A stretch of 64,000 nucleotides of DNA from Curtobacterium poinsettiae (GTDB lineage Bacteria > Actinomycetota > Actinomycetes > Actinomycetales > Microbacteriaceae). Positions 25,553 to 41,033 of this stretch are shown piece by piece. The stretch is taken from contig NZ_CP106879.1 of the NCBI RefSeq assembly GCF_025677645.1, positions 62,001-126,000 of the forward strand, given 5' to 3'. The position numbers and the translations under genes are program-made. Position 1 is the stretch's first letter. Every line of letters begins with the position of its first letter. The notes beneath the pieces were generated by a model. The model saw only the letters and a program-made list of their open reading frames with translations. It did not search any database and had not been told where the DNA came from.

Positions 25553-25625
25553 GCCGGCATGGCGCAATTGGTAGCGCACCGTACTTGTAATACGGGGGTT
25601 GCGGGTTCAAGTCCCGCTGCCGGCC
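25553..25625 (+). tRNA. tRNA-Thr(TGT)
   Basis: A 73-nt cloverleaf: acceptor GCCGGCA/TGCCGGC, D arm GCGC/GCGC, anticodon loop CTTGTAA (TGT, reads ACA), T loop TTCAAGT. Its 3' half (25587 onward) is duplicated at 40994-41033, so the integrated element restored a functional gene on the left. Confidence 0.93.
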
Positions 25626-25626
25626 C
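25587..25626. other. attL core
   Basis: A 40-bp segment beginning GTAATACGGGGGTTGCGG, identical to 40994-41033. It runs from the anticodon loop of tRNA-Thr through its 3' end. Confidence 0.93.
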
Positions 25627-25628
25627 GA

Positions 25629-25673
25629 AAGCCCCGATCAGAAGCCGCTTACCTCGGCATTCGGTCGGGGCTT
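25629..25673. terminator. Terminator between attL and the integrase gene
   Basis: AAGCCCCGA (25629-25637) pairs with TCGGGGCTT (25665-25673); CTTCGTT follows on the plus strand. It can end the tRNA transcript and the minus-strand integrase transcript. Confidence 0.65.
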
Positions 25674-25690
25674 CTTCGTTCACCCCGCGG

Positions 25691-25704
25691 TTACCCCGCA
25701 GATT
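25691..25704. repeat. Subterminal 14-bp repeat, left copy
   Basis: TTACCCCGCAGATT occurs here and at 40879-40892, 64 bp inside attL and 101 bp inside attR respectively. The left copy includes the integrase stop codon. These are candidate arm-type binding sites for the integrase. Confidence 0.45.
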
Positions 25705-26833
25705 GCGATCCATGCGTGAGCGCCGACAGGGCTCGCGCCGCGGCCGCGCTACCCGTGTTGCGCCCCATGTAGCGGTCCTGCGTCATGGACGGGTTCTTGT
25801 GCCCGAGGTACTCCGCGACGTCGCGCGCCGAGAGGCCGGCACCGTCGAGGAGCGTCGCGACCGTCTTCCGGAAGGCGTGAAGCTTGACGCCGGGGAACCC
25901 GAGGGACTCGCGAACACGACGCCAATCGGCCTGGGTGTTGTTCGGGTCGCGGAGGTTGCCGAGGACGGACGGAAAGACGAGCGACCCGACCCCGCGGTCG
26001 GAGGCCCGGCGCTTGAGCATCTCGTCGACGTGCTCAGGGACGGCGATTCGGCGATCGGATCCTTGCGTCTTGCCGTGCTCCTGGCGGAGTAGCCCCTGTC
26101 CCCGGAGCCGAACCACGGTCGAGCGGATGTGGACCGCACCGGGGTAGACGTCTTCCCAGATCATCGCGCAGGCCTCGCCGATGCGACAGCCGGTGCCGGC
26201 CATGAACCGGAGGAGGTCGGCGAGGTCTAGGGCCTGCACCCGCTCGTCGAGGTCCGCCCGCGTCAGCAGATCCTGCAGCTGTTCCGCATTGAGCGCTGTT
26301 GCACCATCACGGCGCTGCGAGACGCGCTCGAGCTCGCGTACCGCATTCGTGCGTGCAGCGTCGTTGCGGACGGCCAGGCCGAGCATCCCGCTGAGGACAG
26401 CCCGGCACATCTTCGCGGACGCAGGGCCGTGATTCGCGATCACCTGGTCCATGAAGCGCTGCAGTCGCTCGGGGGTCGCCTCGAGCACCGCCAGCTCGCC
26501 CAGCGCCGGCAGAACGATCTTGCCCAGGGTCCGTTCGTAGGCAGCCAACGTCGTCGGCGCGACGCCTCCGGTCCGCTTGTTCTCGATGTAGCGGTCGGCC
26601 AGCCGGTTGAGCGGGGTGTGCTGGTTGATGGTCCCGCTCGTCGTCGCCTTGATCGTGGTGAGGGCTGCGAGCAGCTTCCGGCGAGCCTTGGGGCCGCTGG
26701 TGTCGAATCGCTCGACCTGGCGTAGCCGGCCGTCTTCGAAGCGGAAGCGAGTCCGCGCTCGCCAGGACCCGTCGTCCAGCTGGGCCAGGGAGATGGCTCC
26801 GTGAGCGCCGATGGGTGTTCTAGGCCTCGCCAC
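25691..26833 (-). CDS. int: Tyrosine recombinase (phage-type integrase)
   Basis: A 380-residue integrase with an N-terminal arm-binding region, a SAM-like core-binding domain (~70-165) and a catalytic domain with Arg217 (TGCRIGEA), His319-x-x-Arg322 (HAFRKT), His345 (LGHKN) and nucleophile Tyr355 (DRYMGR). It catalyses recombination between attP and the tRNA-Thr site. The GTG start (26831-26833) overlaps the upstream repressor-like gene by 14 bp, so translation is probably coupled and integration linked to repressor transcription. Confidence 0.95.
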   Translation of the reverse strand: MARPRTPIGAHGAISLAQLDDGSWRARTRFRFEDGRLRQVERFDTSGPKARRKLLAALTTIKATTSGTINQHTPLNRLADRYIENKRTGGVAPTTLAAYERTLGKIVLPALGELAVLEATPERLQRFMDQVIANHGPASAKMCRAVLSGMLGLAVRNDAARTNAVRELERVSQRRDGATALNAEQLQDLLTRADLDERVQALDLADLLRFMAGTGCRIGEACAMIWEDVYPGAVHIRSTVVRLRGQGLLRQEHGKTQGSDRRIAVPEHVDEMLKRRASDRGVGSLVFPSVLGNLRDPNNTQADWRRVRESLGFPGVKLHAFRKTVATLLDGAGLSARDVAEYLGHKNPSMTQDRYMGRNTGSAAAARALSALTHGSQSAG

Positions 26834-27557
26834 CGAGCGCTCCGTACTTCTTGATGATCGGCTCCGTTATTGCAAGCGCCGCCGCCCGGTCGACAGACTC
26901 GGCCTCAAGGGAGTCGACCCAGGCGCTGATGGGATCGAGCGAAGGCGGAGTCGTCCCGCGCGCGATGAGATCTAAGCGAATGGCTCGCAGCTTGCCCCAA
27001 GCCCCTTGCACGCCTCGCAGTTCGGCATCGATCAGGCCCTCCGGCTGATCCGCGCTCTGCAGATGCAAGCCAAGTCGGAGCAGTTGGTGGCGAATAGCCT
27101 CAGCAGCCAGGTGATGCTCTTCCAGCGCTCGCAGCAGGACAGCCACGTGTCCGACCGGGGTGTCGCTCAGGTCAGGCTCGTCTCCGACGAACAGGCTTCG
27201 CGTGACCAAGTCGACAGCATCCACGGTCGCGATTCGCCACTCAGGGCCCATCTCGACCGAGTCCTCGACCCCCACCGGCACCAGCAGTGCGAGCGGCGGA
27301 ACCTCCAGAGCGAACGCGAACAGCAGGAGTTCCGCAACGCCGATCGAGCGACGCTTGCCCGCAAGCAGGTTGTTCAGAGTGGTGGGCTTCAAGTAACCGG
27401 GATCCCCCGCCCGAAGCGAAACTGCGGCAGCGAGCTCACCAGTGGTCATGCCCGCCGCCGCTTTGTAGTGCGCGATCGCCCGAACGACCGTCTTCGTGTA
27501 CCGCACCTCCCAGGAGTCACCGGGCAGGGGTTCCGCGCTCGTCTTCATCTCGCTCAC
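26820..27557 (-). CDS. HTH repressor-like protein of the element
   Basis: A 245-residue soluble protein. Residues ~20-85 form an XRE-like helix-turn-helix (AIAHYKAAAGMTTGELAAAVSL, then TTLNNLLAGKRRSIGVAELLLFAFAL); the long C-terminal part is helical and of no known family. Position next to the integrase and divergent from the excisionase-like gene is that of an actinophage immunity repressor. GTG 27557 may be leaderless (TATCGT 27571-27566 is 8 nt upstream); ATG 27548 is an alternative. The operator-like repeats at 27584 and 27635 are its likely targets. Confidence 0.7.
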   Translation of the reverse strand: MSEMKTSAEPLPGDSWEVRYTKTVVRAIAHYKAAAGMTTGELAAAVSLRAGDPGYLKPTTLNNLLAGKRRSIGVAELLLFAFALEVPPLALLVPVGVEDSVEMGPEWRIATVDAVDLVTRSLFVGDEPDLSDTPVGHVAVLLRALEEHHLAAEAIRHQLLRLGLHLQSADQPEGLIDAELRGVQGAWGKLRAIRLDLIARGTTPPSLDPISAWVDSLEAESVDRAAALAITEPIIKKYGALGGEA

Positions 27558-27583
27558 GGAATTTGACGATACACGACACGCCT

Positions 27584-27649
27584 AAGCGGAATCCACTTGC
27601 ACACACGATGTCTCCGAGGTAAGTTCAACCAAGCAAGCGGAAATCACTT
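27584..27649. promoter_or_regulatory. Divergent control region with two operator-like repeats
   Basis: AAGCGGAATCCACTT (27584-27598, near-palindromic) and AAGCGGAAATCACTT (27635-27649) are direct copies 51 bp apart. A rightward promoter TTGCAC (27597-27602), 17 bp, TAAGTT (27620-27625) runs between them, with its -35 touching the first site and its start point next to the second. This is the layout of a phage lysogeny switch. Binding by the adjacent HTH protein is inferred. Confidence 0.6.
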
Positions 27650-27682
27650 AGGCGCTTGCAACCCTGAGCGAAAGGAGACCGC

Positions 27683-27917
27683 ATGAGCGCCACCGAGGCC
27701 AGCGGGCACGAACACCATCCGTCGCAGCGAGGACCTCCCCGACTGGGCAACTCGAGACGAGGTCGCCCAGTACACCGGCGTCGCACCGCAGACGCTCGCT
27801 CGGTGGGTCACCGAGAAGCGCGGTCCGCGGGTCACGAGATTCGGCGGCCGCGCCGTTCGATACGCACGGACAGACGTCCTCGAGTGGATCGACGCCCAGC
27901 GCAAGGCAAGCGCTTGA
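27683..27917 (+). pseudogene. Excisionase-like HTH gene interrupted by a +1 frameshift
   Basis: SD AAAGGAG and ATG 27683 open a frame beginning MSATEASG, but the recognisable protein lies in the next frame from about 27708: EDLPDWATRDEVAQYTG, then APQTLARWVTEKRGPRVTRF, RAVRYARTDVLEWIDAQRK, stop at 27915-27917. That is a MerR/Xis-like winged helix of recombination directionality factors. The second frame has no ATG, GTG or TTG before the domain and carries a stop (27684-27686) overlapping the ATG. One nucleotide change near 27704-27708 joins the frames, so this is a frameshift mutation, a sequencing error or programmed frameshifting. Confidence 0.65.
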
Positions 27918-27957
27918 GCGGGAACGCAAGCCCGACCGCGAGCCAGCGCAAGAGAAA

Positions 27958-27979
27958 AGCCCCGGCGGCAACCGGGGCT
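27958..27979 (+). terminator. Hairpin after the excisionase-like gene
   Basis: AGCCCCGG (27958-27965) pairs with CCGGGGCT (27972-27979), loop CGGCAA. No T-tract follows, so it may be a weak terminator or a processing site between early genes. Confidence 0.5.
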
Positions 27980-28015: not shown

Positions 28016-28381
28016 ATGAACAAGACAGTCCTGACCGTAGCAGACGCCCACGACATCCGGTGGCATGAGATCGACAGCGATGCCGTCGTCCTCGTTCCGT
28101 GCACTGAACCCGGCTGCCAGAGCTACGGCACCCCGCACCTCCTCACCTGGGGTGACCTGCTGCAGCACCGGGCGTCGGAAGTGACTGCCCAGGACACCCG
28201 CGTCGAGGTCATCAAGTACGCCGCGTCCCACGAAGTCGCCGAAGCCGAGTCGTACTGGTACGCCGCCGGCTTCCTCTGCGACGACGACATCCGCCTCACC
28301 CCCGAACGTCTCGCGTTCTTCACCGCCCACTTCAACAGCGCCGTGGCGCTCGCGGCCGAGCTGAACGGGGAGTCCCGCTGA
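28016..28381 (+). CDS. Hypothetical element protein
   Basis: A 121-residue acidic protein starting MNKTVLTVADAHDIRWHE behind SD CAGGAG. It has a single CTEPGC motif (two Cys) around residue 32 and a helical C-terminus. I recognise no family. It is the first of three genes linked by TGATG overlaps, so they form a translationally coupled set read from the rightward early promoter. The same frame is open back to 27683, but the codon pattern there does not look like protein. Confidence 0.6.
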   Translation: MNKTVLTVADAHDIRWHEIDSDAVVLVPCTEPGCQSYGTPHLLTWGDLLQHRASEVTAQDTRVEVIKYAASHEVAEAESYWYAAGFLCDDDIRLTPERLAFFTAHFNSAVALAAELNGESR

Positions 28382-28857
28382 TGGACGACGTCACCAAGCT
28401 CGTCGAGCTCGAACGCACCGCCGCCGGTCGATCGGAGATCCTCATCGACGCTCAGCCCAGCCAGTTCAGCGACGGGTACTCACTCGTGCTCACGCCGTCA
28501 GAAGCGCTCCGACTGGCGCACGCGATCATCGCCCGGGTGTCCGACATCCGAACCTCCCCCCCTCGCAGCCCCCCTGCTCGCTCCGACGCTGCAGGCGGCT
28601 GCCTGATGGCCGAGGTGGCAGCAATCCGCCCGTCGGTGCCGAACCCGACCGCACTCGAGCAGGCATCCGCCGTAGAGGTCACGAACGGGTGGACGCAGGA
28701 CGAGGGCAAGCCCCGAACCCGACAACTCGACGTCGTCCTCCTCACACTCAGCGAGGACGGGACACGTGAGCACGCGAAGCACATGACGCCGGCCGAAGCC
28801 GATCGGCTCGCCGCGGAGCTCACCGCGATGGCGAACCGTGTCCGGCGGGCCAGCTGA
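28381..28857 (+). CDS. Hypothetical element protein with two related halves
   Basis: 158 residues. The first half ends SLVLTPSEALRLAHAIIARV and the second HMTPAEADRLAAELTAMANRV; both follow a beta-rich stretch and a T-P-x-E-A-x-R-L-A helix. They look like a duplicated ~70-residue domain joined by a Pro/Arg/Ser linker. An internal ATG at 28606 behind a TGATG-type context could also produce the second half alone. Function unknown. Confidence 0.6.
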   Translation: MDDVTKLVELERTAAGRSEILIDAQPSQFSDGYSLVLTPSEALRLAHAIIARVSDIRTSPPRSPPARSDAAGGCLMAEVAAIRPSVPNPTALEQASAVEVTNGWTQDEGKPRTRQLDVVLLTLSEDGTREHAKHMTPAEADRLAAELTAMANRVRRAS

Positions 28858-29159
28858 TGGACACCAGCAGCTACGAACGGTGCACACAGCGAGGCTGCAT
28901 CCGGTTCGGCCTTTGGCACACCACACGAGACAGCGGACACCGCTTCCGCACCGTCCGCACAGCGCTCGCCGCAGTGTCGATTGAGAAGCGCGATGAGGAC
29001 GGGCCCTGGACCGTCTGGCTCGCTCGAGGTGACGACAACCCCGTGCAGGTGACAGCGCCGCCCGATCCGACACCGGACGTCATCCATGCGGACCACATGG
29101 AGCTCAGGGCGGCAGTGCTCTATGCGTTGCGCGGCGCCGAGAAGTTCAACGCCGTCTGA
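28857..29159 (+). CDS. Hypothetical element protein
   Basis: A 100-residue protein overlapping the previous stop codon (TGATG). The N-terminus has CTQRGC, similar in spacing to the CTEPGC of the gene at 28016, which suggests the two are distant relatives. No membrane segment. Function unknown. Confidence 0.55.
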   Translation: MDTSSYERCTQRGCIRFGLWHTTRDSGHRFRTVRTALAAVSIEKRDEDGPWTVWLARGDDNPVQVTAPPDPTPDVIHADHMELRAAVLYALRGAEKFNAV

Positions 29160-29216: not shown

Positions 29217-29255
29217 ATGACACAGACCACCGACAGCCAGAGGGAGGCCAGATGA
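29217..29255 (+). CDS. 12-residue micro-ORF coupled to the replication-like gene
   Basis: Starts ATG 29217 after SD GGGAGAGAA and encodes MTQTTDSQREAR, with its TGA overlapping the next ATG (ATGA at 29252). It probably serves only to load ribosomes onto the downstream gene. Confidence 0.4.
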   Translation: MTQTTDSQREAR

Positions 29256-29884
29256 CCGACGCGCGTTTCCCCGAGCGCCTCCTCAGCGACCGCCGCGTGC
29301 TGCGTCTCAGCGCCGACGAATACCGCGGGTGGTCGATCGCGACGATCTGGTCGGTCTCAAACCGCACGGACGGTCTGATCCTCGTCGAGGACCTTCCTCT
29401 GGTGCCATTCATGACGAGTGCTATCGCCGAGAAGCTCGAGACGGCCGGTCTGTGGGCGAAGGCACCAGGTGGATGGCTGCTCGCCGACTTCCACCGCGAC
29501 CAGACCAGTCGCAGCGACCTCGAAGTGCTCGAACGAGCACGCAAGGCGGACCGCGAGAAGAAGCAGCGCCAGCGGTCCCAGAAGAAGGAATCCCTGGGAC
29601 TGTCCCCGGGACATGTCCCCGGGACGACACAGGACAGGACAGGCAAGGCAAGGACAGGCCAGGACAGGCCAGAACAGAACGCAGTTACCGACTGGAACAC
29701 CGCTTCGATTCCAGAGACCGACCCGAATCCGGACGCAGTCGCCCCGGGGATGTCTTCGCCACCGCTCGCTGATCTGCGCCGCTGCGCCGTCTGCGAGCGC
29801 CGTCTGTCCCCATCCTCTGGGGACTTGCTCTGCTCCGTGCAGGACGAGGCCCACTGGGCGCACGAAGCGGCCCACGCCATCTGA
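29252..29884 (+). CDS. Replication-initiator-like protein of the element
   Basis: 210 residues. The first ~90 residues (RFPERLLSDRRVLRLSADEYRGWSIATIWS ... VPFMTSAIAEKLETAGLW) resemble the winged-helix N-terminus of actinophage replisome-organiser proteins. A basic helix (ERARKADREKKQRQRSQKK) and a low-complexity linker follow, then a C-terminal zinc-ribbon-like part (CAVCERR ... CSVQDEAHW). The linker is encoded by direct repeats that could be origin iterons, as the lambda origin lies in its O gene. The function is inferred from position and pattern. Confidence 0.5.
   Translation: MTDARFPERLLSDRRVLRLSADEYRGWSIATIWSVSNRTDGLILVEDLPLVPFMTSAIAEKLETAGLWAKAPGGWLLADFHRDQTSRSDLEVLERARKADREKKQRQRSQKKESLGLSPGHVPGTTQDRTGKARTGQDRPEQNAVTDWNTASIPETDPNPDAVAPGMSSPPLADLRRCAVCERRLSPSSGDLLCSVQDEAHWAHEAAHAI
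29590..29680. repeat. Iteron-like repeats inside the replication-like gene
   Basis: Palindromic GTCCCCGGGAC occurs at 29602-29612 and 29615-29625, preceded by the degenerate TCCCTGGGAC (29591-29600), giving a 12-13 bp period. They are followed by overlapping copies of ACAGGACAGG / AAGGACAGGCC up to about 29680. A candidate replication origin. Confidence 0.5.
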
Positions 29885-29959: not shown

Positions 29960-30406
29960 ATGGCACAGCAGCAGTCCGCATCAAGTGACCAGCCCCGCAG
30001 CACCTGGCAGATCGAGTTCCTGAAGCGCCTCGAGGACATCGCGAACAACTCGATGAACCCCCGCGTCTACACCGACAGCGACGGCGTCCCGACCGCGGTC
30101 GCCGGCGCAGGCACTGTTTCCGTTGCCGCTTGGTACCTGTCATCCGAGCTCGCCGCGAAGACAGACCGCCCCGACCTGTTCGCAGACACCATCGCCCGGC
30201 ACCAGATGTACGTCGAGCAGCGCATCGGCCCCGAGGCGTGGACCGAGGTTCTCGTCAGCACCGCGCTGTACCTGAACTACCACCACCTCGAGCCCGCCCT
30301 CGCACTCCTCGACAAGACCCGCACCCCGCTCCGGGCCCTCGAGCGGCAGTTCTGGGACTCGATCAGGCCTAGCGACCCCGACGACGGCCGCCCTGGTGTC
30401 GCCTGA
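29960..30406 (+). CDS. Hypothetical element protein
   Basis: A 148-residue soluble, mostly helical protein (RSTWQIEFLKRLEDIANNSMNP ... TALYLNYHHLEPALALLDKT). SD CAGGAAG precedes ATG. It overlaps the start of the following HTH gene by 11 nt. No family recognised. Confidence 0.55.
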   Translation: MAQQQSASSDQPRSTWQIEFLKRLEDIANNSMNPRVYTDSDGVPTAVAGAGTVSVAAWYLSSELAAKTDRPDLFADTIARHQMYVEQRIGPEAWTEVLVSTALYLNYHHLEPALALLDKTRTPLRALERQFWDSIRPSDPDDGRPGVA

Positions 30407-30818
30407 GCAGCGCATGCCGCGACAGCCCCAGAACCTCGTCGTCGGCGCGCACGGGCCTGAGGTCACGGTCACCGGCAGAGTCGCCGCCTACTTACTCCGG
30501 TACGCCGGCCTCGACGCTTACCGGCGACAGCACCGCGGCGAAGACCCCGAAGTCGACAACACCCTCGTCGCCCTCACCGTGGTCGCCCTCACCTGGCGCG
30601 GTTCCGCTACCGGAACGCGAGAGGCCGCGCCCCCGGAACTCGATCACACTGCGGACTGGATGAGCACCCGACAAGCGGCCGAAGCCCTCGGGCTCTCGGA
30701 CCGCGGCATCCGGAAAGCAATCCAGGAACACCGGCTGCACGCCGTTCGCGTGGGACGCGTCTGGCGCGTCGACCGCGAACAACTGGCCCACTACATCGAA
30801 CGAACGGACAAGACATGA
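30396..30818 (+). CDS. Excisionase-family HTH protein
   Basis: 140 residues. The C-terminal 50 residues are a MerR/Xis-type winged helix: DWMSTRQAAEALGLSDRGIR, KAIQEHRLHAVRVGRVWRVDREQLAHYI. The N-terminal 80 residues are of unknown type. It may be a late-gene activator or a directionality factor. GTG 30396 overlaps the previous gene; ATG 30414 is an alternative start. Its stop overlaps the next ATG (ATGA). Confidence 0.7.
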   Translation: MSPEQRMPRQPQNLVVGAHGPEVTVTGRVAAYLLRYAGLDAYRRQHRGEDPEVDNTLVALTVVALTWRGSATGTREAAPPELDHTADWMSTRQAAEALGLSDRGIRKAIQEHRLHAVRVGRVWRVDREQLAHYIERTDKT

Positions 30819-31360
30819 TCTCTGCAGAACTCGAAGCAGAAGTGCAAGGGCTGCGCGCACGCGCCGCGGACATCCAGGACAGCTACAGCCGAGAGCGGAA
30901 AGACATCGACTCGGACGTCAGCCTGTCCGAAGCCGGCAAGCAGGCCGCCTGGGACGAGGCTGAAGCCGAAGCCCGATCGTCGGCGAAGGCGCTCCGCGAG
31001 AAGGAGATCGCCCTGGTCAAGAACCGCATCCGCAGCTTGCAGACGCAGCTCGACGCGAAGATCGGCTACGGTGCGACCGACATCATCGCGTTCCGAGACG
31101 CGCAGGACCGCGCCGATCGCGTCGCGGACAAGGAGACAGCAGCCCGCCTCATGGGCCAGGCGCTCCGCAACAACGACCGCACCATGGCTCACGCGCTGTT
31201 CCGCAAGGCATCCGAGAGCGGCTGGAGTGAGGCTGCCCAACAGTTCGCGGCTGAGAACCCTGACTCCGCTGCAGCCGCGAAGGAGATCGAGAGCCTCGAG
31301 AAGCTCCTCAGCTCGGGCAGCTTCCAGCGGACGCTGTCCTACATGATCGCCCGCTACTGA
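30815..31360 (+). CDS. Coiled-coil element protein
   Basis: A 181-residue highly charged, almost entirely helical protein with heptad-like segments (MISAELEAEVQGLRARAADI, KALREKEIALVKNRIRSLQT). No membrane segment. The shape resembles phage scaffold or head-assembly accessory proteins, but I cannot assign a family. Coupled to the upstream gene by ATGA. Confidence 0.5.
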   Translation: MISAELEAEVQGLRARAADIQDSYSRERKDIDSDVSLSEAGKQAAWDEAEAEARSSAKALREKEIALVKNRIRSLQTQLDAKIGYGATDIIAFRDAQDRADRVADKETAARLMGQALRNNDRTMAHALFRKASESGWSEAAQQFAAENPDSAAAAKEIESLEKLLSSGSFQRTLSYMIARY

Positions 31361-31453
31361 CCCCAGGGGGAGGGCCCCCACCCCTGCACCTGGAAGTACC
31401 ACAGGGGATAGGCGTCGTCTCTCCCCGGCTCGAAAAAACGAAACGAGGACGCC

Positions 31454-31696
31454 GTGCCCAGGGCGCAGAAAGTGAAGATTGCCCCCGCCGTCGCAGGCAG
31501 CAGACGGGAGGTGCTCGAGGCTCTCCGCCGCCGCATCGCCGAGGAGATCGACTCCGGCGCTGTCGCGTCGCATGCTCTCGCTCGTCTCATCGCTGAGCTG
31601 TCCCGGATCGATGCCGAGCTGCGAACCCCGATCGTGGACGACGTCAACGACGAGGAAGACGTGGAGGACGGAGTGTTCGATCCCGGCACGATCTGA
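31454..31696 (+). CDS. Possible small terminase-like protein
   Basis: 80 residues starting GTG 31454. The segment SRREVLEALRRRIAEEIDSG ... LARLIAELSRIDAEL followed by an acidic tail ending VFDPGTI resembles the short actinophage small terminase subunits, which recognise packaging sites. The 90 bp upstream (GGGGGAGGGCCCCC region) look like the G-tract-rich area in which actinophage cos sites often lie. No large terminase follows, so if the call is right the element would rely on a helper. Weak similarity by eye only. Confidence 0.4.
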   Translation: MPRAQKVKIAPAVAGSRREVLEALRRRIAEEIDSGAVASHALARLIAELSRIDAELRTPIVDDVNDEEDVEDGVFDPGTI

Positions 31697-31707
31697 CACC
31701 TCGATTC

Positions 31708-31744
31708 GGAACCGCGGCCCGCACTAACAGGCGGCCGCGGTTCC
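31708..31744 (+). terminator. Rho-independent terminator after the terminase-like gene
   Basis: GGAACCGCGGCC (31708-31719) and GGCCGCGGTTCC (31733-31744) are perfect complements, followed by TTCGGTTTGT. It separates the early/packaging genes from the tail genes. Confidence 0.8.
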
Positions 31745-31773
31745 TTCGGTTTGTCCCTGGTCACGGCTAGAAT
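31745..31773 (+). promoter_or_regulatory. Candidate promoter of the tail genes
   Basis: TTCGGT (31745-31750), 17 bp, TAGAAT (31768-31773). The -10 is good and the -35 is partial. A GTG-started 24-codon frame (31778-31852, beginning MTDTTAEHVAGG) opens 4 nt downstream. Confidence 0.45.
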
Positions 31774-31814
31774 CGAGGTGACGGACACCACTGCCGAACA
31801 CGTCGCGGGTGGGT

Positions 31815-31889
31815 CAGACAGCATCGCTGTCTGGCCGGAGGACAACCCCTAGCAACTCCCGGGGGAAGCGCTAGGAAGCGTGTCCTCCG
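31815..31889 (+). promoter_or_regulatory. Structured RNA leader ending at the tape-measure start codon
   Basis: CAGACAGC-ATC-GCTGTCTG (31815-31833) forms a hairpin. CGGAGGACA (31836-31844) pairs perfectly with TGTCCTCCG (31881-31889) and encloses CCTAGC / GCTAGG (31848-31853, 31870-31875). The outer stem ends exactly one base before the TTG start at 31890, and its 5' strand contains a GGAGG sequence. This could control tape-measure translation; no known RNA family recognised. Confidence 0.5.
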
Positions 31890-34631: not shown

Positions 34632-34665
34632 ACCGCAACCCCCACTCACGACAGAAAGAGACAAC

Positions 34666-35913
34666 ATGCAGCCGTACACAAAGGTCCCCTGGATGGAACT
34701 GCCCAGGCCCGACGAGGCCGAAGTCCGTCCTTCGGGCGGTGAGGGACTCTACTTCCGGCGGCGGCTCGCGCCGCTTGCCGCCGGCGCATTCGGATCCGGT
34801 ATCGCCTGGCTCGGCGACTCGATCACCCGTGGTCTCGGCGCGACCAACAAGGGCGACTCCTGGCCCGGTGTCATCGCTGGCACCAGCGTGGCCGTGGCTG
34901 GCGACAGCATCCCGACGTACGCCATGCTCCACTCAGGCGGGAAGCTGGCGAAGACGGTCAACGCCGGCGTCAGCGGCGACACCACCGCGAAGATGCTCGC
35001 GCGCGTCAAGAAGGACGTCATCGACTACAACCCCGCGGTGTGCGTTGTCCTCGGTGGCACCAACGACTCGGCGACACCGGTGCCCGTCGACGACTTCGCC
35101 GCGAACATCACGGGGATCGTCACCCAGCTCCGAGCAGCGGGCATCGTCCCGGTGCTCTGCACCATCCCGACCATCAACTCGACGGCGCAGCGGCCGGTGA
35201 TCGTGAACTACAACACGTGGCTCCGCCGGTACTGCGCCGTGCAGGGCATCCGGATGCTCGACTTCTACGCCCTCACCGTCGATCCCGCGACAGGTAACTT
35301 GCTGCAGTCCACGATGGGCAACACCGACGGCACGCACCCGGGCAACATCGGCAACGCGCTGCTCGGGAAGTACGCCGCCGACACGCTCGCACCGCTCGTG
35401 GGAGCTGCGACCATCCCCGTCGCGTCGGACAACACCGACGCACTGAACCTCGTGCCGGACGGCCTCAACTACGGATCCGTGACCAACGGGCTGGCAGCCC
35501 CGTGGGGAGTCTTCGGCTCACTCCCGACCGGCGCGACCCCATCCGTGGTCACCGACTCGCTCGTGCCCGGGAAGATGCAGCAGCTGTCACTCTCCGCCAC
35601 GACAAGCGGGGTGACGCTGTACAAGCGGATCACGCCGACCCCCGGACGGCGCATCGTGATCTCGGGCACGGTGACGAAGACCGCCGGCGCGGCCGGCCTG
35701 CGGGCCTACTTCAACACGTCCAACCAGACCGACACGTACAACCAACTCCTCGACATCACCGAGGCAGTCACCCGCGGCAAGTTCTCGACCGAGCTCGTCG
35801 TGCCCGAGAATACGAACAGCATCGACCTCAAGATGTTCGTCCAGCCCGGAACCACGACGTTCGCCGTCGGACAGCTGACTGCCTACGACCTCACCGCACA
35901 GGCGGTGCTGTAG
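34666..35913 (+). CDS. SGNH/GDSL hydrolase, probable phage tail-tip protein
   Basis: 415 residues. The SGNH hydrolase domain (~42-245) shows all blocks: Ser52 in GDSIT, Gly in NAGVSGDTT, Asn133 in GGTNDS and the DGTHP Asp/His pair. The C-terminal ~160 residues form a beta-rich jelly-roll-like module (KRITPTPGRRIVISGTVTKT ... FVQPGTTTFAVGQLTAYDL) of the carbohydrate-binding type. There is no signal peptide, so export by itself is unlikely; behind a tape-measure gene it probably acts on the host surface as part of the tail. ATG 34666, SD GAAAGAG. Confidence 0.8.
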   Translation: MQPYTKVPWMELPRPDEAEVRPSGGEGLYFRRRLAPLAAGAFGSGIAWLGDSITRGLGATNKGDSWPGVIAGTSVAVAGDSIPTYAMLHSGGKLAKTVNAGVSGDTTAKMLARVKKDVIDYNPAVCVVLGGTNDSATPVPVDDFAANITGIVTQLRAAGIVPVLCTIPTINSTAQRPVIVNYNTWLRRYCAVQGIRMLDFYALTVDPATGNLLQSTMGNTDGTHPGNIGNALLGKYAADTLAPLVGAATIPVASDNTDALNLVPDGLNYGSVTNGLAAPWGVFGSLPTGATPSVVTDSLVPGKMQQLSLSATTSGVTLYKRITPTPGRRIVISGTVTKTAGAAGLRAYFNTSNQTDTYNQLLDITEAVTRGKFSTELVVPENTNSIDLKMFVQPGTTTFAVGQLTAYDLTAQAVL

Positions 35914-36090: not shown

Positions 36091-36597
36091 ATGGCCGACC
36101 GAGATGACGCGACGATACTCGACGATCGACTCGCGGACAGCAGCTCGAACTGGGAACACTCCTGGTTACGCCTTGAAGCGATCGAAGCCGGCGGATCCCC
36201 GAAACGGTGGCAGCAGCTCATCAGCGCACTCGTTTGGGCCCTTGGCGGGAAGGACCTCGCGTACGTGCACTCCCGGGTGGAAGTGCTCGGCGACAGCGGT
36301 CTCATCGAGATCCATCTGTTCACCAGCACGACTTTGGTGCGGGTGAGCATCAGCCACGAACACCCCGACCCGGTTCCTGAGGTGGTCGCGCTCGACACGC
36401 TAGAAGCCATTCGGATCGTGCGAGCTCCGTCTGTGTTCAGCGATGGCCGAGGGATGGTGCCCAAGCGGGCTCGGCTCGAGCTGACCTTCGCCCATGGCGA
36501 CCCCGTCACCATCGACAACGAGCAGACCTACACCACCAGCGCGGAACACCTGCTGGACTACTACCCAACCCTGTTGAAGCACCTCGCCAAGAGCTGA
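36091..36597 (+). CDS. Cargo protein of unknown function (first of a pair)
   Basis: A 168-residue soluble protein (MADRDDATILDDRLADSSSN...) behind SD GAGGGGAAG. It has alternating beta strands (LIEIHLFTSTTLVRVSISHE) and a conserved-looking WQQLISALVWALGG helix. The region is less GC-rich than the chromosome. It ends 7 bp before the next gene, so they form a two-gene unit. No family recognised. Confidence 0.55.
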   Translation: MADRDDATILDDRLADSSSNWEHSWLRLEAIEAGGSPKRWQQLISALVWALGGKDLAYVHSRVEVLGDSGLIEIHLFTSTTLVRVSISHEHPDPVPEVVALDTLEAIRIVRAPSVFSDGRGMVPKRARLELTFAHGDPVTIDNEQTYTTSAEHLLDYYPTLLKHLAKS

Positions 36598-36604
36598 GAC
36601 GCCG

Positions 36605-37087
36605 ATGCAACTACACGAACTCCGAGCGCTGATCATCGACAGCGCCCACGAAGCTTGGACCGTCATCAGGGACGGTCCACCATTCCACCCCGACGCCGCA
36701 GGCCGTGAGCACCCGCTTCGTGCCGTGATGACGGACGACCTCGAGGTCGCGCTCGAATGGGGCCTTAGCGCCAACGACGGCAACCAGGCCACGGTAGACA
36801 AATACGACTGGGCCGAGATCGCACGTTTCAGGGACCCGGCCGTTGCCGAGGTATGGGTGGACGTGCGACTGCAAGGCGAACTCGTCGAGCGAGTGAGGCT
36901 GCTTCTGGTCGACGGCGGACGGGCGTACCTACCGTTCCCGGAGAAAATCGACGGGACCTGGATCACTCAGAAGTGGGAACGCTCGCTTGCGAGCCTCGTC
37001 ACGAGACTGCAGGGGCTGTGGGGCGGTCACGGACGATGGGGCGAGCACTACCTCCGCCAGATCCGCGCCGACCACGACACCTACTGA
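36605..37087 (+). CDS. Cargo protein of unknown function (second of a pair)
   Basis: A 160-residue soluble protein (MQLHELRALIIDSAHEAWTV...) with several Trp residues and a GLWGGHGRWGEHYLRQ end. Co-transcribed with the previous gene; its 3' end converges on the membrane-protein cluster (9-bp gap). Could be a defence, toxin-antitoxin or immunity pair, but nothing in the sequence proves it. Confidence 0.55.
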   Translation: MQLHELRALIIDSAHEAWTVIRDGPPFHPDAAGREHPLRAVMTDDLEVALEWGLSANDGNQATVDKYDWAEIARFRDPAVAEVWVDVRLQGELVERVRLLLVDGGRAYLPFPEKIDGTWITQKWERSLASLVTRLQGLWGGHGRWGEHYLRQIRADHDTY

Positions 37088-37096
37088 GGCACGCAG

Positions 37097-37678
37097 TCAC
37101 ACATCCGAGACGCCCTCCACGAGATCGTGCAACTCTGACATCGACACTCGGTCTTCCTGCTCGCCTGCCAACCATCGATCGGCATCCGCAACCCACGACC
37201 TGACCGCGGGACGTGAGTAGCGGTGCCAGAGCAAGGCCATCGCCTGTCCCTCACTCGTGTCGTCCGAACTGTGCGGGACCCTCTTCAAGCGGTCACTGAG
37301 CGTGCGGACGAGTTCCTCACTGTGCTGCCCGACAAGGGCTGCCTTGAGGTCGATTTCCTCGCGAAGTACTCCTGCGGTCTTCCCCTTCGACTCCTGGGCT
37401 CTGTCCTGCAGCCGCTCTCGGACTTCGGCTCGCGACCACTGCGTCACGAGATCGGCGAAATCGCCGCGAGCAGCGCGATCACCGGCCTCTTCGGAAGCCC
37501 TCCGGACGGCCGCCTCGCGCTCAGCTGCGCTCTGCGCAATCCGGTTGCTGTGGAGGGCGACGGCGATCGCGCCAGCTCCGACGGCGATACTCCCGAGGGC
37601 TCCGAGGGCCGGTACGCCGATGTCGTTCCACCACTCGTATGAGAACCACGGGTGCCAGTCAGTCGTTAGGAGCATCAC
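37097..37678 (-). CDS. Single-pass membrane protein of the cargo cluster
   Basis: 193 residues. A short Trp-rich N-terminus (DWHPWFSYEWWND), one transmembrane helix (~21-43), then a charged helical cytoplasmic region (AQSAAEREAAVRRASEEAGD ... ERLQDRAQES) and a C-terminal part with LLWHRYSRPAVRSW. No enzyme motif seen. It lies downstream of a strong terminator, so it has its own promoter or depends on readthrough. Confidence 0.55.
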   Translation of the reverse strand: MMLLTTDWHPWFSYEWWNDIGVPALGALGSIAVGAGAIAVALHSNRIAQSAAEREAAVRRASEEAGDRAARGDFADLVTQWSRAEVRERLQDRAQESKGKTAGVLREEIDLKAALVGQHSEELVRTLSDRLKRVPHSSDDTSEGQAMALLWHRYSRPAVRSWVADADRWLAGEQEDRVSMSELHDLVEGVSDV

Positions 37679-37818
37679 TCGTTGACCGTACTGCGATCGA
37701 ACGGCCGGGATTCAGTCTGGCTCGCTTGATCCGATAGTAGGAACTGTCGGAGGCGCAGATCGGGCTTCCGAGGCGGAGGAAGGGCCTCGGCGGCTTTGCT
37801 CATTCCCAGAAACGAAAA

Positions 37819-37846
37819 CCCCTCAGATCCGCGATGATCTGAGGGG
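37819..37846 (-). terminator. Rho-independent terminator inside the cargo cluster
   Basis: CCCCTCAGATC (37819-37829) and GATCTGAGGGG (37836-37846) are perfect complements, loop 6 nt; on the minus strand TTTTCGTTTC follows. It ends the three-gene unit 39246-37862. Confidence 0.85.
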
Positions 37847-37861
37847 GTCCGGTCCGACTGA

Positions 37862-38362
37862 CTAGACGAGTTGAGGTACTGCGCCGGTGGCGTTCCACGC
37901 ATCATCATCGCCGGTCGAGCGAGTGATGGGGCGTTCCGGGAAGAGCCACCAAGGAGTCGGTTCTGGAGCCGTATGACGCTCCGCGACCCGTGCCCAAGTG
38001 CTCGAGTAAGTAAGGCGACGCTCGTTCTCGGCCGCTCTGATGAGCGCGAGAATCCGCTCAGATCGGATGGTCGCCAGGATCCGCTCAGGATCCCGGTCCT
38101 CAACTACGACCGAGTCCGAGAACAGCGAAAAGACGGGACGCGGAACTTCCACCACACGAGCGGACGCTGCAGGCTGTCCTATCGCTTCGAGGGACTTCAA
38201 CACTCGGTTGGCTGCCTCCTCGGCCTCCTCCGTACTGCGGAGGGCACGCTCCTGTGAGCGCACGACCTTCTTGCTCGAAGGGCTAAACAGAACGACGGCG
38301 ATCGACCCGACGAGAGCCAGAACGCTCACGATCGCGGCGATCAGCACGATGATATTGGCCAT
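37862..38362 (-). CDS. Single-pass membrane protein with coiled-coil segment
   Basis: 166 residues. An N-terminal transmembrane helix (~3-27) is followed by a charged helical segment (RSQERALRSTEEAEEAANRV) and a C-terminal soluble part with DPERILATIRSERILALIRA and WWLFPERP. No known domain. It follows the 83-residue gene by 15 bp in the same transcript. Confidence 0.55.
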   Translation of the reverse strand: MANIIVLIAAIVSVLALVGSIAVVLFSPSSKKVVRSQERALRSTEEAEEAANRVLKSLEAIGQPAASARVVEVPRPVFSLFSDSVVVEDRDPERILATIRSERILALIRAAENERRLTYSSTWARVAERHTAPEPTPWWLFPERPITRSTGDDDAWNATGAVPQLV

Positions 38363-38377
38363 CCCCTACCTCCTTGC

Positions 38378-38629
38378 CTACAGTCTGTCTACCACTGCTT
38401 GAACGTGGCTGAGTTTGGAATCGATGTTCGCCAGCCGCTCAACCACCTGGGTGTTCACCTGGTCGAGGCTCTTGCTCAGGCGTTTGCTACTTCGCTCCAT
38501 AGCCTTCGACTGGTCTCGGATCAGCTGCATGCTCGAGTCCTTCTGACGTTTGAAGAGCATCACGAAGTTGATGACTGCGGTGATGCCGGCGACGCTTGCC
38601 GTCACTGCCTGAAGGATGGCGATCGTCAC
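38378..38629 (-). CDS. Small membrane protein with coiled coil
   Basis: 83 residues: a transmembrane helix (~5-27) followed by a continuous charged helix (MQLIRDQSKAMERSSKRLSK ... RLANIDSKLSHVQAVVDRL) with heptad pattern. The size and architecture resemble small membrane-tethering or holin-like proteins, but there is only one membrane helix. Overlaps the upstream gene by ATGA. Confidence 0.55.
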   Translation of the reverse strand: MTIAILQAVTASVAGITAVINFVMLFKRQKDSSMQLIRDQSKAMERSSKRLSKSLDQVNTQVVERLANIDSKLSHVQAVVDRL

Positions 38630-39246
38630 AGGTCTACCTCACGCGCCCAATCTGGCACCGTGATCGACGGGGTGACGCTCGCAGAGACTGCCCTCAGCCC
38701 TGCTCGGATCTTCACCAAGTCCTCAGTGAAATCGTCAAGTCCCGATCCGGTCAGCTGGAAGATGATGGCCTCTTGACCGCCGACCTGTTCATCGAGTTCA
38801 AGCCGAACCAGGACCACAGGGACCACCTCGACGCCGTCGGCTTGGTCACCTGTCGGCTCCACCACACGGAGATCGAGGGTCAGTGCCGCGCCGACGAGGT
38901 TGGGAAGGAACCCCTCGCGCACGCGAACGCCTTGCTGGCGACGATCAATCTGTTCCGTCGGCGTGATTATGGCTCGGAGGGCGTCGACATGCTCGTCGGA
39001 GAGTTCGTCCTTCATTACCGTCTTGACGTCGTCGATGACGGCGTCGACACCGTCCTGTGAGGCGGCTTGGTAGGCGAACCGAACTGCGGCGCGAACGCCC
39101 ACCCAGTCCTCATCGCTCAACTGCTCTGGGCGAGGAGCGTCTCGCCTGAGCGAGTCCGCCGCGGACGCACGGTTACTGGGCTCGAGAGCCTGCTTGAGCG
39201 AGGCCTGGAAGCCACCAATTCTCAGCGTAGGACGAAGGGAGCTCAT
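38626..39246 (-). CDS. Soluble partner protein of the membrane cluster
   Basis: 206 residues without membrane segments. The N-terminal half is helical (SDEDWVGVRAAVRFAYQAAS, VMKDELSDEHVDALRAIITP). The C-terminal half alternates hydrophobic strands (LTLDLRVVEP, EVVPVVLVRLELDE, AIIFQLTGS) before a final helix (LDDFTEDLVKIRAGLRAV). The strand-strand-helix pattern loosely recalls COMM-type domains, a weak impression only. First gene of the coupled unit. Confidence 0.5.
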   Translation of the reverse strand: MSSLRPTLRIGGFQASLKQALEPSNRASAADSLRRDAPRPEQLSDEDWVGVRAAVRFAYQAASQDGVDAVIDDVKTVMKDELSDEHVDALRAIITPTEQIDRRQQGVRVREGFLPNLVGAALTLDLRVVEPTGDQADGVEVVPVVLVRLELDEQVGGQEAIIFQLTGSGLDDFTEDLVKIRAGLRAVSASVTPSITVPDWAREVDL

Positions 39247-39410
39247 GGCGCGCGCCGTCCGGTCAGAGAGAGCATGGATGAACCGTACCTCACCAGCACC
39301 TGCGGGGATGCGCCAATTCGGGGGGCACGCGAGCGAGCCGATGATCGGTCAACCACGGACCACTGCAGCTCTCCTCAGGCTGACGTCCTGGCAGACAGGG
39401 CTCGCCACAA

Positions 39411-39971
39411 TCAGCAGCCCTGCGTGGTGTCAGCGCTGAGGTTGAGGCGGAGCCGGATGCGCTGCGACGCAGCGCCCGACACTTCGTCCGAGGGGAACGC
39501 CACCGCGTTCGCCTGCTCGAGCGACGCAGACTCCTTGATGGTGTTGATCGCGGGTAGGGCTTGGAAGTAGTAGTCGCGGAGGGAGTCGACGTCCTTCTGT
39601 TCGATGACCTCGGGCCAGACCACCTTCTGATCGTCGAGGCGTCTCGCCGCGTCCTGCGCCGACGTGATGAGCGGTCCCGACGACGAGTGGATGGCGTCGA
39701 GGTTCTGCGCCACCAGCGCGTCGTTGAGCGTCTTGGATGCCGCATTGACAGGACAGACGGTCTCGAGGAAGTACTTCCCGGCCTCGTCGACACTCATCGC
39801 CGCCGGTGTGGGGGTCGGAGTAGGCGTCGGGGTTGCCGTCGATGCCGTGGAAGTCAGCGTGCTCGAGGCGGTCGTTTCCTTCTGCCCGCTGCTCGAACAA
39901 CCGGAGAGCGCGACGATGAGCGCGAGAGCAGTGGCTGTTGGCGCGACGATCCTCATCATGATGAGCATCAC
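39411..39971 (-). CDS. Element-encoded lipoprotein
   Basis: 186 residues. A lipoprotein signal peptide ends in LSGC (Cys about residue 25), followed by a Thr/Pro-rich spacer (TPTPTPTPTP) and a mainly helical domain with two further Cys. Lipoproteins encoded by temperate phages and satellites often block superinfection at the cell surface; that role is inferred from context. ATG 39971 overlaps the preceding stop codon; ATG 39956 (MRIVAPTA) gives a more usual signal peptide. Confidence 0.65.
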   Translation of the reverse strand: MMLIMMRIVAPTATALALIVALSGCSSSGQKETTASSTLTSTASTATPTPTPTPTPAAMSVDEAGKYFLETVCPVNAASKTLNDALVAQNLDAIHSSSGPLITSAQDAARRLDDQKVVWPEVIEQKDVDSLRDYYFQALPAINTIKESASLEQANAVAFPSDEVSGAASQRIRLRLNLSADTTQGC

Positions 39972-40264
39972 TCTACGAGGCGCATGCCGCGTCTGAACCC
40001 GTCCGCAGGCCTCAGTATTGGGCTGACTGCATCACGCCACACCCAAACGCACTCGGCCGCCTGACCGAACCCCCACTCGACGAGCGCAGCCCGCTCCGTA
40101 TACGCGATGACTCGCCCCTCGACCTCGAGAGAGCGGTCGGGGAACGTCACCCAGGCGAGGACCGGGTCCGGCTCTGCGAGGTCGTAGACGGGCCCACCGT
40201 AGGCTGCTTCGGGCAAGCTGAGCGCTGGGCCGAGCGCCCACCTGTCACGACGTCGCTTTGCCAC
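39968..40264 (-). CDS. Hypothetical phage-type small protein
   Basis: 98 residues: AKRRRDRWALGP start, a beta-rich centre (EVEGRVIAYTERAALVEWGF) and VWVWRDAVSP. Strand-rich SH3-like pattern. It overlaps the lipoprotein gene by ATGA, so they are coupled. Function unknown. Confidence 0.5.
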   Translation of the reverse strand: MAKRRRDRWALGPALSLPEAAYGGPVYDLAEPDPVLAWVTFPDRSLEVEGRVIAYTERAALVEWGFGQAAECVWVWRDAVSPILRPADGFRRGMRLVE

Positions 40265-40299
40265 CCGGCGACGGTAGCGGAAGCCTCAGACAGGGAGGG

Positions 40300-40452
40300 C
40301 TACAGCCGCCGTGGCTCATCGGGGAGCGACTGCAGCCATCGCTCCCCCTCCTCGCGCAGGATGAGCGCCTTCTTCCTCCCCGGGTACTTCGCCACCAGCT
40401 CACCTCGCCGGATCGCCTGGATCGAGTACGCGAGTTGCCCCTGGTCTTCCAC
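40300..40452 (-). CDS. 50-residue excisionase-like HTH protein
   Basis: GTG-started frame encoding MEDQGQLAYSIQAIRRGELV, AKYPGRKKALILREEGERWL, QSLPDEPRRL. The pattern S-x-x-A-I-x-x-G-x-L-x-A-x-x-x-G-R and W-L-x-S-L-P is that of minimal MerR/Xis-type winged helices. It lies 35 bp before the gene at 40264 on the same strand and is divergent from another HTH gene. Confidence 0.5.
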   Translation of the reverse strand: MEDQGQLAYSIQAIRRGELVAKYPGRKKALILREEGERWLQSLPDEPRRL

Positions 40453-40573
40453 ACGTCGATCGTCGCCCCCTCAACGCCGACAGGCAATCGACAGATCTGA
40501 GGAGGCGCGTCGAAGACATGCGCGAACTCTTGGACGTCCCGCGTGCCGGCAGCTGCGCGCGTACGTTGCACCC

Positions 40574-40867
40574 GTGAAGGACGCACCGGACGACCGCCAC
40601 GCCCTCGACGTACCGGAGCTCGCGAAGTGGCTCAACATCTCCGAGTGGAAGGCCCGCGAACTCGGCAACGACCTGCTGTTTCCCTCGTTCCGAGTCGGCA
40701 GGGCGCACCGCTTCTGGCCGTCGGAGGTGCGGGCATACCTGTCGGAGCCGCGCGATCCGTGGAAGCAGTCACCGCAGTCGAGGGGTCGGAAGCGAGTCGG
40801 ACGGCCGCAAGCGGCGGGGTACCGAAGCCAGTGGCCCGCGCCGAAGCCGCCGCACCCGACGGAGTGA
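40574..40867 (+). CDS. Excisionase-like HTH protein beside attR
   Basis: 97 residues from GTG 40574. The winged-helix core is ALDVPELAKWLNISEWKARE followed by LLFPSFRVGRAHRFWPSEVR; the C-terminus is basic and Pro-rich. Its position 126 bp from attR and the frameshift in the other xis-like gene make it a candidate for the working directionality factor. Alternatively it is a regulator of the divergent minus-strand unit. Confidence 0.6.
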   Translation: MKDAPDDRHALDVPELAKWLNISEWKARELGNDLLFPSFRVGRAHRFWPSEVRAYLSEPRDPWKQSPQSRGRKRVGRPQAAGYRSQWPAPKPPHPTE

Positions 40868-40878
40868 CGTACCCGCAC

Positions 40879-40892
40879 TTACCCCGCAGATT
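40879..40892. repeat. Subterminal 14-bp repeat, right copy
   Basis: Second TTACCCCGCAGATT, in the same orientation as 25691-25704. Candidate integrase arm site. Confidence 0.45.
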
Positions 40893-40993
40893 CGCTGCCA
40901 CAGGGCGGAAGTTGCCGGAACCCCACGAGCAGGAAAAGCCCCGTTGAGCGCGCAAGACGCCATCTAGGGGAAGAAGCTGGAATGCTCCGTCAG

Positions 40994-41033
40994 GTAATAC
41001 GGGGGTTGCGGGTTCAAGTCCCGCTGCCGGCCC
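40994..41033. other. attR core
   Basis: Identical over 40 bp to 25587-25626. It is the displaced 3' half of tRNA-Thr and cannot form a tRNA by itself. Confidence 0.93.

What the first reader, a model, noticed from the sequence alone, without database searches (positions are those of the whole stretch)
25587..41033. Phage-derived element with tail genes but no head genes: satellite candidate
Seen: a 40-bp identical att repeat at tRNA-Thr, integrase, repressor-like gene, a replication-like gene, a possible small terminase, a 913-residue tape measure and an SGNH tail protein, but no capsid, portal, large terminase, tail tube or lysis gene in 15.4 kb. Known: most described capsid-encoding satellites lack tails; the reverse, an element that carries tail-determining genes and lacks a head, is little described. 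Inference: it either redirects a helper's assembly to make hybrid tails or is a decayed prophage. Independent terminators, a promoter and intact long ORFs in the tail block argue for retained function.
Basis: partly seen in the sequence, partly recalled or inferred. Interest (0 to 1): 0.85.

Follow-up and report, generated by a model that had tools for sequence, protein, structure and literature searches.

The report
Headless phage satellite with tail ruler
This 15.4-kb piece of Curtobacterium DNA belongs to a family of inserted elements, found in several bacterial genera, that carry a phage tail-length gene without recognisable head, motor or tail-tube genes; it is predicted to be a phage parasite that would borrow a helper phage's particles and build their tails around its own ruler protein.

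Summary
In detail: att repeat, integrase, replication gene, TerS-like gene, full-length 913-aa tape measure protein (TMP), no recognisable head genes. Prophage decay is not the best reading. Nine headless TMP loci lie in 7 of 66 Curtobacterium genomes; 20 more loci in 19 other Microbacteriaceae genomes share a marker protein (o9; no match in 50,697 phage records). Nine of those 20 also carry a TMP, one of a clearly different type in the same slot. Of the structural and packaging proteins of reference phages, these loci match almost only specifiers: TerS, HNH, scaffold-like protein, TMP. The window also has a candidate cos site (31361-31427) resembling the joined genome ends of Arthrobacter phage Pitbull. 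One satellite TMP pair shows strong purifying selection (dN/dS 0.065); satellite and phage TMPs interleave in a tree (at least 6 switches). Best reading: an actinobacterial phage satellite that would make chimeric tails, as Vibrio PLEs do (Mathur et al. 2026). The principle is known; this family, with siphoviral TMPs, cos-like sites and TMP exchange, looks new. Nothing was tested experimentally.

The parts
25553..25626 (+). tRNA-Thr(TGT); its 3' 40 bp (25587-25626) is attL
   Evidence: ARAGORN; repeat
40994..41033 (+). attR, identical 40-bp copy
   Evidence: empty sites in relatives
25691..26833 (-). tyrosine integrase (96% identical to that of satellite L005)
   Evidence: dN/dS 0.080 vs L005
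26820..27557 (-). HTH repressor-like protein (weak)
   Evidence: HTH_31, 0.028; position
28016..29159 (+). three small early genes shared with satellite L005 (in part with other satellites)
29252..29884 (+). replication-initiation-like protein
   Evidence: phrog_2447 7.5e-13
29960..30406 (+). conserved satellite protein o7
30414..30818 (+). HTH_17 protein, 85-93% identical in L004/L005, no match in phage records
30815..31360 (+). o9: satellite marker protein, all-helical model (mean pLDDT 90), no confident fold match
31361..31427 (+). candidate cos site; cut expected between 31409 and 31410 by analogy with phage Pitbull
31454..31696 (+). small terminase subunit-like (TerS), 93% identical in L005; shares a VEDG motif near its end with the G010 prophage (VEDGVFD) and Pitbull (VEDGKFE) proteins
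   Evidence: dN/dS 0.071 vs L005
31775..31889 (+). conserved, folding leader upstream of the TMP gene (110 of 115 columns identical in 3 satellites)
31890..34631 (+). tail tape measure protein, 913 aa, TTG start
34660..35913 (+). SGNH/GDSL hydrolase, 97% identical in satellite L004; possibly a tail or receptor enzyme (inferred)
36091..40264 (.). variable cargo genes without PADLOC match; no Pfam match above the curated cut-off among the seven scanned
40361..40867 (+). excisionase-like HTH protein (weak)
   Evidence: phrog_66, 0.0079; HTH_17, 0.0084; relatives in L004/L005

Best explanation
The element is most likely an integrated phage satellite that would be packaged by a helper cos-type siphovirus and would build that helper's tails around its own tape measure protein. 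Shown by sequence: it is bounded by att repeats; it has an integrase, a replication-initiation-like gene, a TerS-like gene, a cos-like site and a full-length TMP; it has no recognisable TerL, portal, capsid, tail tube, baseplate or lysis gene; and it belongs to a family with a similar layout at different att sites. Inferred: a helper infection lifts repression, the element excises and replicates, its TerS and cos direct the helper's terminase to satellite DNA, the DNA enters helper heads (perhaps altered by o9), and satellite TMP replaces helper TMP while helper tube, chaperones and tip are borrowed. Such a TMP would also pass with the DNA into the next cell, so it may set tail length, membrane entry or both. 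Exchange with phage TMPs suggests the gene is swapped to fit available helpers.
For: Recurrence: 9 headless TMP loci in 7 of 66 Curtobacterium genomes; o9 in 21 of 398 Microbacteriaceae genomes, 15 of 85 genera, giving 20 loci outside Curtobacterium, 8 with a PF10145 TMP just downstream (one in a broken frame) and 1 with a 1224-aa TMP of another type in the same slot. Mobility: att-like repeats for 10 of 29 loci, spans 8.9-16.9 kb, at tRNA-Thr, Ser, Val, Arg, Lys and two non-tRNA sites; empty sites. Selective content: tblastn of phage structural/packaging proteins against 29 loci found only TerS, scaffold-like, HNH and TMP; TerL, portal and capsid models hit no satellite locus in the genomes searched. 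cos: Pitbull termini and the G010 site both pick 31361-31427 as best place in 64 kb (62, next 34; 73, next 35); in 14 of 29 loci the best Pitbull match lies in the o9-TMP interval, 0.70 expected, 8 shuffles 0-1. Selection: G007 and G000b TMPs, both 1279 aa, dN/dS 0.065. Exchange: satellite TMPs are not one clade (p-AU 3.2e-5; at least 6 switches forced). Precedent: PLE chimeric tails (PMC12987554).
Against: No expression, excision, packaging or virion data. No resident helper seen: the TerL (phrog_9), portal (PF04860, phrog_104) and capsid (phrog_10) models give 0 hits in G000. The window has no recognisable tail chaperone, which PLEs encode. TerS is weak by profile (1e-3). No att repeat was found for 19 of 29 loci; L003's 19 bp is borderline and G161's right repeat lies inside a predicted integrase gene. 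TMP is optional: 11 of 20 o9 loci outside Curtobacterium lack an intact or broken full TMP (G183 has a fragment), and G300's is broken. Strong purifying selection was shown for one TMP pair; window TMP pairs (dN/dS 0.27-0.40) are diverged and similar to a phage-phage pair (0.27). Seven of the 14 cos placements score 40 or less, near chance level though in the expected place; termini of three other phages placed 2, 3 and 6 loci, four inner Pitbull stretches 0, 2, 2, 2 (over TerS and HNH genes). Absence of head genes rests on similarity to the reference phages and models used.
Confidence: 0.72

Rival explanations
1. Decayed prophages: each element is what is left of a full siphophage after deletion of head, lysis and most tail genes.
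For: TMPs are clearly of phage origin; G300 has a broken TMP and G183 a fragment; no experiment shows activity.
Against: The same selective set recurs in many genera and at different att sites; o9 and HTH match no phage record; one TMP pair and single TerS, SGNH and integrase pairs show dN/dS 0.065-0.085, HTH 0.18, o9 0.22; a TMP of another type fills the same slot in G222.
Confidence: 0.1
2. Satellite, but the TMP is an interference weapon: it poisons helper tail assembly and is not built into satellite particles.
For: Satellites are known to block tails (Tai, PMC11364771, passages; Rta of PLE11, PMC12987554); a TMP without its chaperone could jam assembly (inference).
Against: TMPs keep both ends (five aligned), lie in the length range of phage TMPs (893-1293 aa in 16 vs 898-1344 aa in 6) and sit beside phage lineages in the tree; Tai and Rta are different proteins.
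Confidence: 0.13
3. The TMP sits on a satellite mainly to change host entry (TMP and SGNH as injection and receptor factors), with tail length unimportant.
For: The SGNH gene follows the TMP and is 97% identical in L004; TMP lengths are not systematically shorter than those of near phages.
Against: No host-range data; SGNH-like genes were recognised in only 3 of the 9 Curtobacterium elements (window, L004, L003); not truly exclusive of the main reading.
Confidence: 0.25
4. Tailocin or injection-machine remnant.
For: A tail gene without head genes.
Against: No tube, baseplate, sheath or lysis gene recognised; integrase, replication gene, TerS and cos-like site are present.
Confidence: 0.01

Closest known systems
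PLE satellites of Vibrio cholerae (Mathur et al. 2026, PMC12987554; abstract, section 8 and passages read)
   Same: Satellite without its own head genes that encodes its own TMP; there the TMP was shown in virions and its deletion cut transfer.
   Different: PLEs serve the contractile-tailed lytic phage ICP1 and also encode a tail chaperone (some a baseplate hub). Here TMPs are siphoviral PF10145 proteins (36-58% identical to Pitbull's in best segments), there is a cos-like site, and the window has no recognisable chaperone.
cf-PICIs with putative tmp genes (Extended Data Fig. 10 legend of PMC12987554, passage seen)
   Same: Satellites with predicted TMPs outside Vibrionaceae.
   Different: cf-PICIs encode capsid and packaging genes; these elements show none.
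AH14b, 16.8-kb satellite of Pseudomonas phage AH14a (PMC4936722; passages read)
   Same: Small integrated satellite that carries a helper-like tail assembly gene (tail assembly protein I).
   Different: The TMP is reported on the helper AH14a, not in the passages on AH14b.
cos-type PICIs (features recalled; PMC6092414 and PMC5052747 seen only in a search listing)
   Same: Size, integrase, regulator, replication gene, TerS, cos packaging.
   Different: Mathur et al. [quoted passage not shown] PICI core proteins were not compared here.
Mulch/Flayer satellites of Streptomyces (PMC10690885; passages read)
   Same: Actinobacterial phage satellites.
   Different: They encode capsids and packaging, and 'tape measure' does not occur in the paper's text; these have a TMP and no capsid.
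Curtobacterium prophages (Evseev et al. 2023, PMC9862828; abstract and passages read)
   Same: Same host genus; siphoviral prophages with TMPs, i.e. likely helper types.
   Different: That survey analysed 64 of 70 regions, those with MCP and TerL, so headless elements fell outside it; 'satellite' does not occur in its main text.

Membership tests
phage satellite (general) | Integrated, att-bounded, 7-20 kb element with integrase, regulation and replication genes | tested here: met
   (regulator weak)
phage satellite (general) | Lacks the genes for an autonomous virion | tested here: met
phage satellite (general) | Recurrent lineage distinct from phages | tested here: met
phage satellite (general) | Mobilised and packaged by a helper phage | not testable with these tools
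   only indirect: cos candidate and TerS
PLE | Homologous PLE backbone in Vibrio and ICP1-type helper | not tested
   host is Curtobacterium; no PLE sequence was compared
PLE-like function: chimeric tails | Satellite-encoded TMP gene | tested here: met
PLE-like function: chimeric tails | Satellite-encoded tail assembly chaperone | tested here: not met
   none recognised in the window element; G318 has a weak candidate (25% to an L006 gene placed like a chaperone)
PLE-like function: chimeric tails | Satellite TMP in virions | not testable with these tools
   needs particles
cf-PICI | Own capsid, portal and TerL genes | tested here: not met
PICI (cos type; definition recalled) | TerS with a helper-like cos site | tested here: met
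   (sequence similarity only)
PICI (cos type; definition recalled) | Homologous PICI core proteins | not tested
   no PICI reference set was searched
decayed prophage | Relics of head genes, or related full prophages with the same backbone | tested here: not met

The most novel reading that the evidence does not exclude
A widespread actinobacterial satellite superfamily that carries only the rulers and selectors of a virion and none of the bricks: cos, TerS and HNH choose the DNA, o9 and a shortened scaffold set the head, and a swappable tape measure protein sets the tail and entry. The TMP slot works as a helper adaptor, refilled from phage to phage.
Probability: 0.45. Interest if true: 0.82.

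Novelty: new variant of a known kind. Interest (0 to 1): 0.7.

Why it matters
Tail remodelling by satellites was shown in 2026 for one Vibrio family. A second family in another phylum, with siphoviral TMPs, many sequenced members and natural pairs with and without the TMP, makes the question of what a satellite gains from its own TMP directly testable. The tree suggests that TMPs move between satellites and phages repeatedly, which would make satellites a reservoir of tail genes.

Tried and rejected
Tail shortening as the main purpose: satellite TMPs (893-1293 aa, 16 measured) are not consistently shorter than those of phages (898-1344 aa, 6 measured); near pairs: window 913 vs 926, L005 907 vs 898, G057b 1175 vs 1344, G000b 1279 vs 995 and 1032.

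o9: good model but no PDB or BFVD match at E <= 0.001; no confirmed relative in IMG/VR by a single-protein scan; of 17 database relatives most are unnamed or hypothetical, and one on a 1-kb contig bears the name 'phage tail sheath gpL-like'. Rfam on the element: the tRNA and a match on its opposite strand below that family's gathering score. PADLOC on 8 window cargo proteins: none. Consensus promoter/terminator scan of 31300-32000: none. A PHROG scan of 125 ORFs of the other 8 Curtobacterium satellites shows only 25 of 80 matched families; none shown is TerL, portal or capsid, but rarer matches could be hidden; integrases, proteins over 500 aa (the TMPs) and ORFs under 55 aa were left out. blastn of the cos candidate against phage records gave 15 weak records (E 0.6-7): 6 Mycobacterium records (3 phages) match within about 50 bases of their right end, the other 9 do not lie at such an end as far as listed. 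For the region upstream of the other TerS type (L006, phrog_1496) no convincing satellite match appeared. Four weaker TMP hits in Curtobacterium (G006, G026, G029, G034) and IMG/VR loci L103, L104, L107 were not classified. Nine paper runs list no paper whose title or abstract start describes this family; most listed papers were not opened, preprints on bioRxiv and most subscription journals are not in that library.

Full report
OBSERVATION. The element is real. Identical 40-bp repeats lie at 25587-25626 and 40994-41033, the first at the end of tRNA-Thr. The two flanks joined give a full-length match in 24 of 66 Curtobacterium genomes, i.e. empty sites, and are split by the element in the window's genome. 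Protein scans confirm integrase, replication-initiation-like gene, TerS-like gene, TMP and SGNH hydrolase, and show no head, TerL, tube or lysis family among the 20 ORFs scanned. The repressor-like and TerS calls are weak by profile alone.

A FAMILY, NOT A SINGLE REMNANT. The TMP was searched in 66 Curtobacterium genomes; 14 have a match. I examined the context of 13 loci in 10 of these genomes. Nine are headless: the window (G000a), a second one in the same genome (G000b), G003/L003, G007, G009/L005, G015/L004, G015b, G042 and G057b. Four belong to full prophages or their fragments: G057a/L006, G010, G044 and G011 (on a short contig; TerL and portal hits lie on another contig). The other four genomes have weaker matches and were not examined. 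Protein o9 (30815-31360), present in 6 of the 9, was then searched as a profile: 21 of 398 Microbacteriaceae genomes, 15 of 85 genera. That gave 20 loci outside Curtobacterium in 19 genomes. Eight have a PF10145 TMP just downstream (G327, G076, G318, G099, G069, G338, G172b, G300, the last in a broken frame). One (G222) has a 1224-aa TMP of another type in the same slot: no BLAST match to the window TMP and no PF10145 match, best PHROG phrog_58, though some PHROG TMP families are shared. G183 has a fragment. Six others carry a DNA invertase conserved at 78-90% (one of them scanned by PHROGs). A search of 396 genomes of the order gave 8 with o9, of which two clear matches and one weak one lie in other families. 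o9 (E <= 0.01) and the HTH protein (E <= 0.001) match none of 50,697 phage records, and the replication protein matches 9 weakly.

MOBILITY. Direct repeats bounding the element were found for 10 of 29 loci, with spans of 8.9-16.9 kb, at tRNA-Thr (2), tRNA-Ser (3), tRNA-Val, tRNA-Arg, tRNA-Lys and two non-tRNA sites. L003's 19-bp repeat is borderline, and G161's right repeat lies inside a predicted integrase gene.

WHAT IS KEPT AND WHAT IS MISSING. Structural and packaging proteins of L006, G010, G044 and Arthrobacter phage Anekin, and a set from Arthrobacter phage Pitbull, were compared by tblastn with all 29 loci. Four kinds hit: TerS, scaffold-like (L004, L005, G318), an HNH endonuclease (G000b, G327, G318, G099, and away from the slot in G172a) and TMP. 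In these two searches no locus matched TerL, portal, protease, capsid, tail tube, chaperone, minor tail, endolysin or holin. By an earlier blastp, G318 also has a gene 25% identical to the L006 gene that lies between major tail protein and TMP. Profile searches found TerL (18 genomes), portal (two models) and capsid (one model; 19 genomes each) in no satellite locus; the genomes of ten o9 loci without PF10145 TMP were not in those searches. The L004 scaffold-like protein (123 aa) matches the C-terminal part of phage scaffold profiles; that of L005 is 80% identical to it. The window has no scaffold-like gene: its o9 is followed directly by the cos candidate.

A COS SITE. Between o9 and TerS lie 67 bases (31361-31427) that resemble the sequence upstream of TerS in the G010 prophage and the joined genome ends of phage Pitbull. 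In the whole 64-kb window this is the best place for both queries (scores 62 and 73; next 34 and 35; best of 30 shuffled queries 41 and 46). Over 29 loci the best Pitbull match falls in the o9-TMP interval 14 times, with 0.70 expected, and the G010 site 12 times; 8 shuffles gave 0-1. Seven of the 14 scores are 40 or less. Four inner Pitbull stretches gave 0, 2, 2 and 2, explained by TerS and HNH genes; termini of three other phages gave 2, 3 and 6. By analogy with Pitbull the cut would be between 31409 and 31410. The window's TerS shares an RxxLxAxRxRIA core and a VEDG motif near its end with the G010 and Pitbull proteins.

TMP EVOLUTION. In a tree of 30 TMP N-terminal regions, 17 satellite and 10 phage rows need 8 switches of label (shuffled mean 8.3); at least 6 are forced by well-supported branches; three rows were unclassified. 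A single satellite clade is rejected (p-AU 3.2e-5). Near pairs are satellite G057b with the G044 prophage, G000b/G007 with L102/G011, and L005 with IMG/VR phage L100. G007 and G000b, in different species and with different flanks, both encode 1279 aa with dN/dS 0.065. Pairs with the window TMP give 0.27-0.40, other satellite-phage pairs 0.25-0.47 and a phage-phage pair 0.27; single TerS, SGNH and integrase pairs give 0.07-0.09, HTH 0.18, o9 0.22. Lengths show no systematic shortening.

A CONSERVED LEADER. The 115 columns before the TMP start are 110 of 115 identical in window, L004 and L005, against 29 of 80 just upstream and 60-72% identity at third positions of the first 43 TMP codons. It folds better than shuffles in the window (z -4.0; -4.1), less so in L004 (-2.6) and L005 (-1.5), and occurs in 3 of 66 genomes, those of the three satellites. 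It may regulate TMP translation (inference).

MECHANISM. Shown: gene content, att sites, cos similarity, selection. Inferred: induction by a helper, packaging through TerS/cos, use of helper heads and tail parts, and replacement of helper TMP. The closest experimental precedent is the PLE: TMP of PLE11 is in its virions, tails are about 10 nm shorter, and tmp deletion cuts transfer (PMC12987554, section 8 read). That paper also reports putative tmp genes in cf-PICIs (legend passage). Membership in PLE or cf-PICI is not claimed.

LIMITS. No experiment; helper unknown; the window genome has no hit of the TerL, portal and capsid models searched. TMP is optional within the wider family. Head-gene absence rests on the reference phages and models used; the PHROG scan of the other satellites shows only 25 of 80 families.

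Noticed in passing
window genome G000:C1 about 3.406-3.422 Mb (L040/L041): A second headless TMP satellite in the same genome, at tRNA-Ser, 16.4 kb, with a 1279-aa TMP, o9, a phrog_1496-type TerS and an HNH match.
   Followed up: partly
window 31775-31889: Highly conserved, folding leader before the TMP start; no Rfam match there.
   Followed up: partly
L083, L084, L086, L087, L089, L090: Six o9 loci carry a DNA invertase/serine recombinase 78-90% identical across genera and no TMP of the searched kind.
   Followed up: no
L076 and L077 (G338, G141): Closely similar o9-type backbones with matching left flanks in two related genomes, one with a TMP and one without.
   Followed up: no
L004:15389-16288: Satellite cargo protein matching PADLOC candidate defence family PDC-S45 (1.2e-85).
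   Followed up: no
L085:11314-12696 and L078:6991-8841: Proteins with tail-spike-like matches (phrog_7458, 7.8e-5 and 6.4e-6) at or beside the TMP slot in two satellites.
   Followed up: no
window 36091-40264: Cargo block of small proteins, several with membrane-like N-termini by eye, without strong family matches.
   Followed up: partly
L079:34-1146: A further integrase (56% identical to that of G000b) overlaps the right repeat of the G161 satellite: possible tandem element, or an uncertain right end.
   Followed up: no
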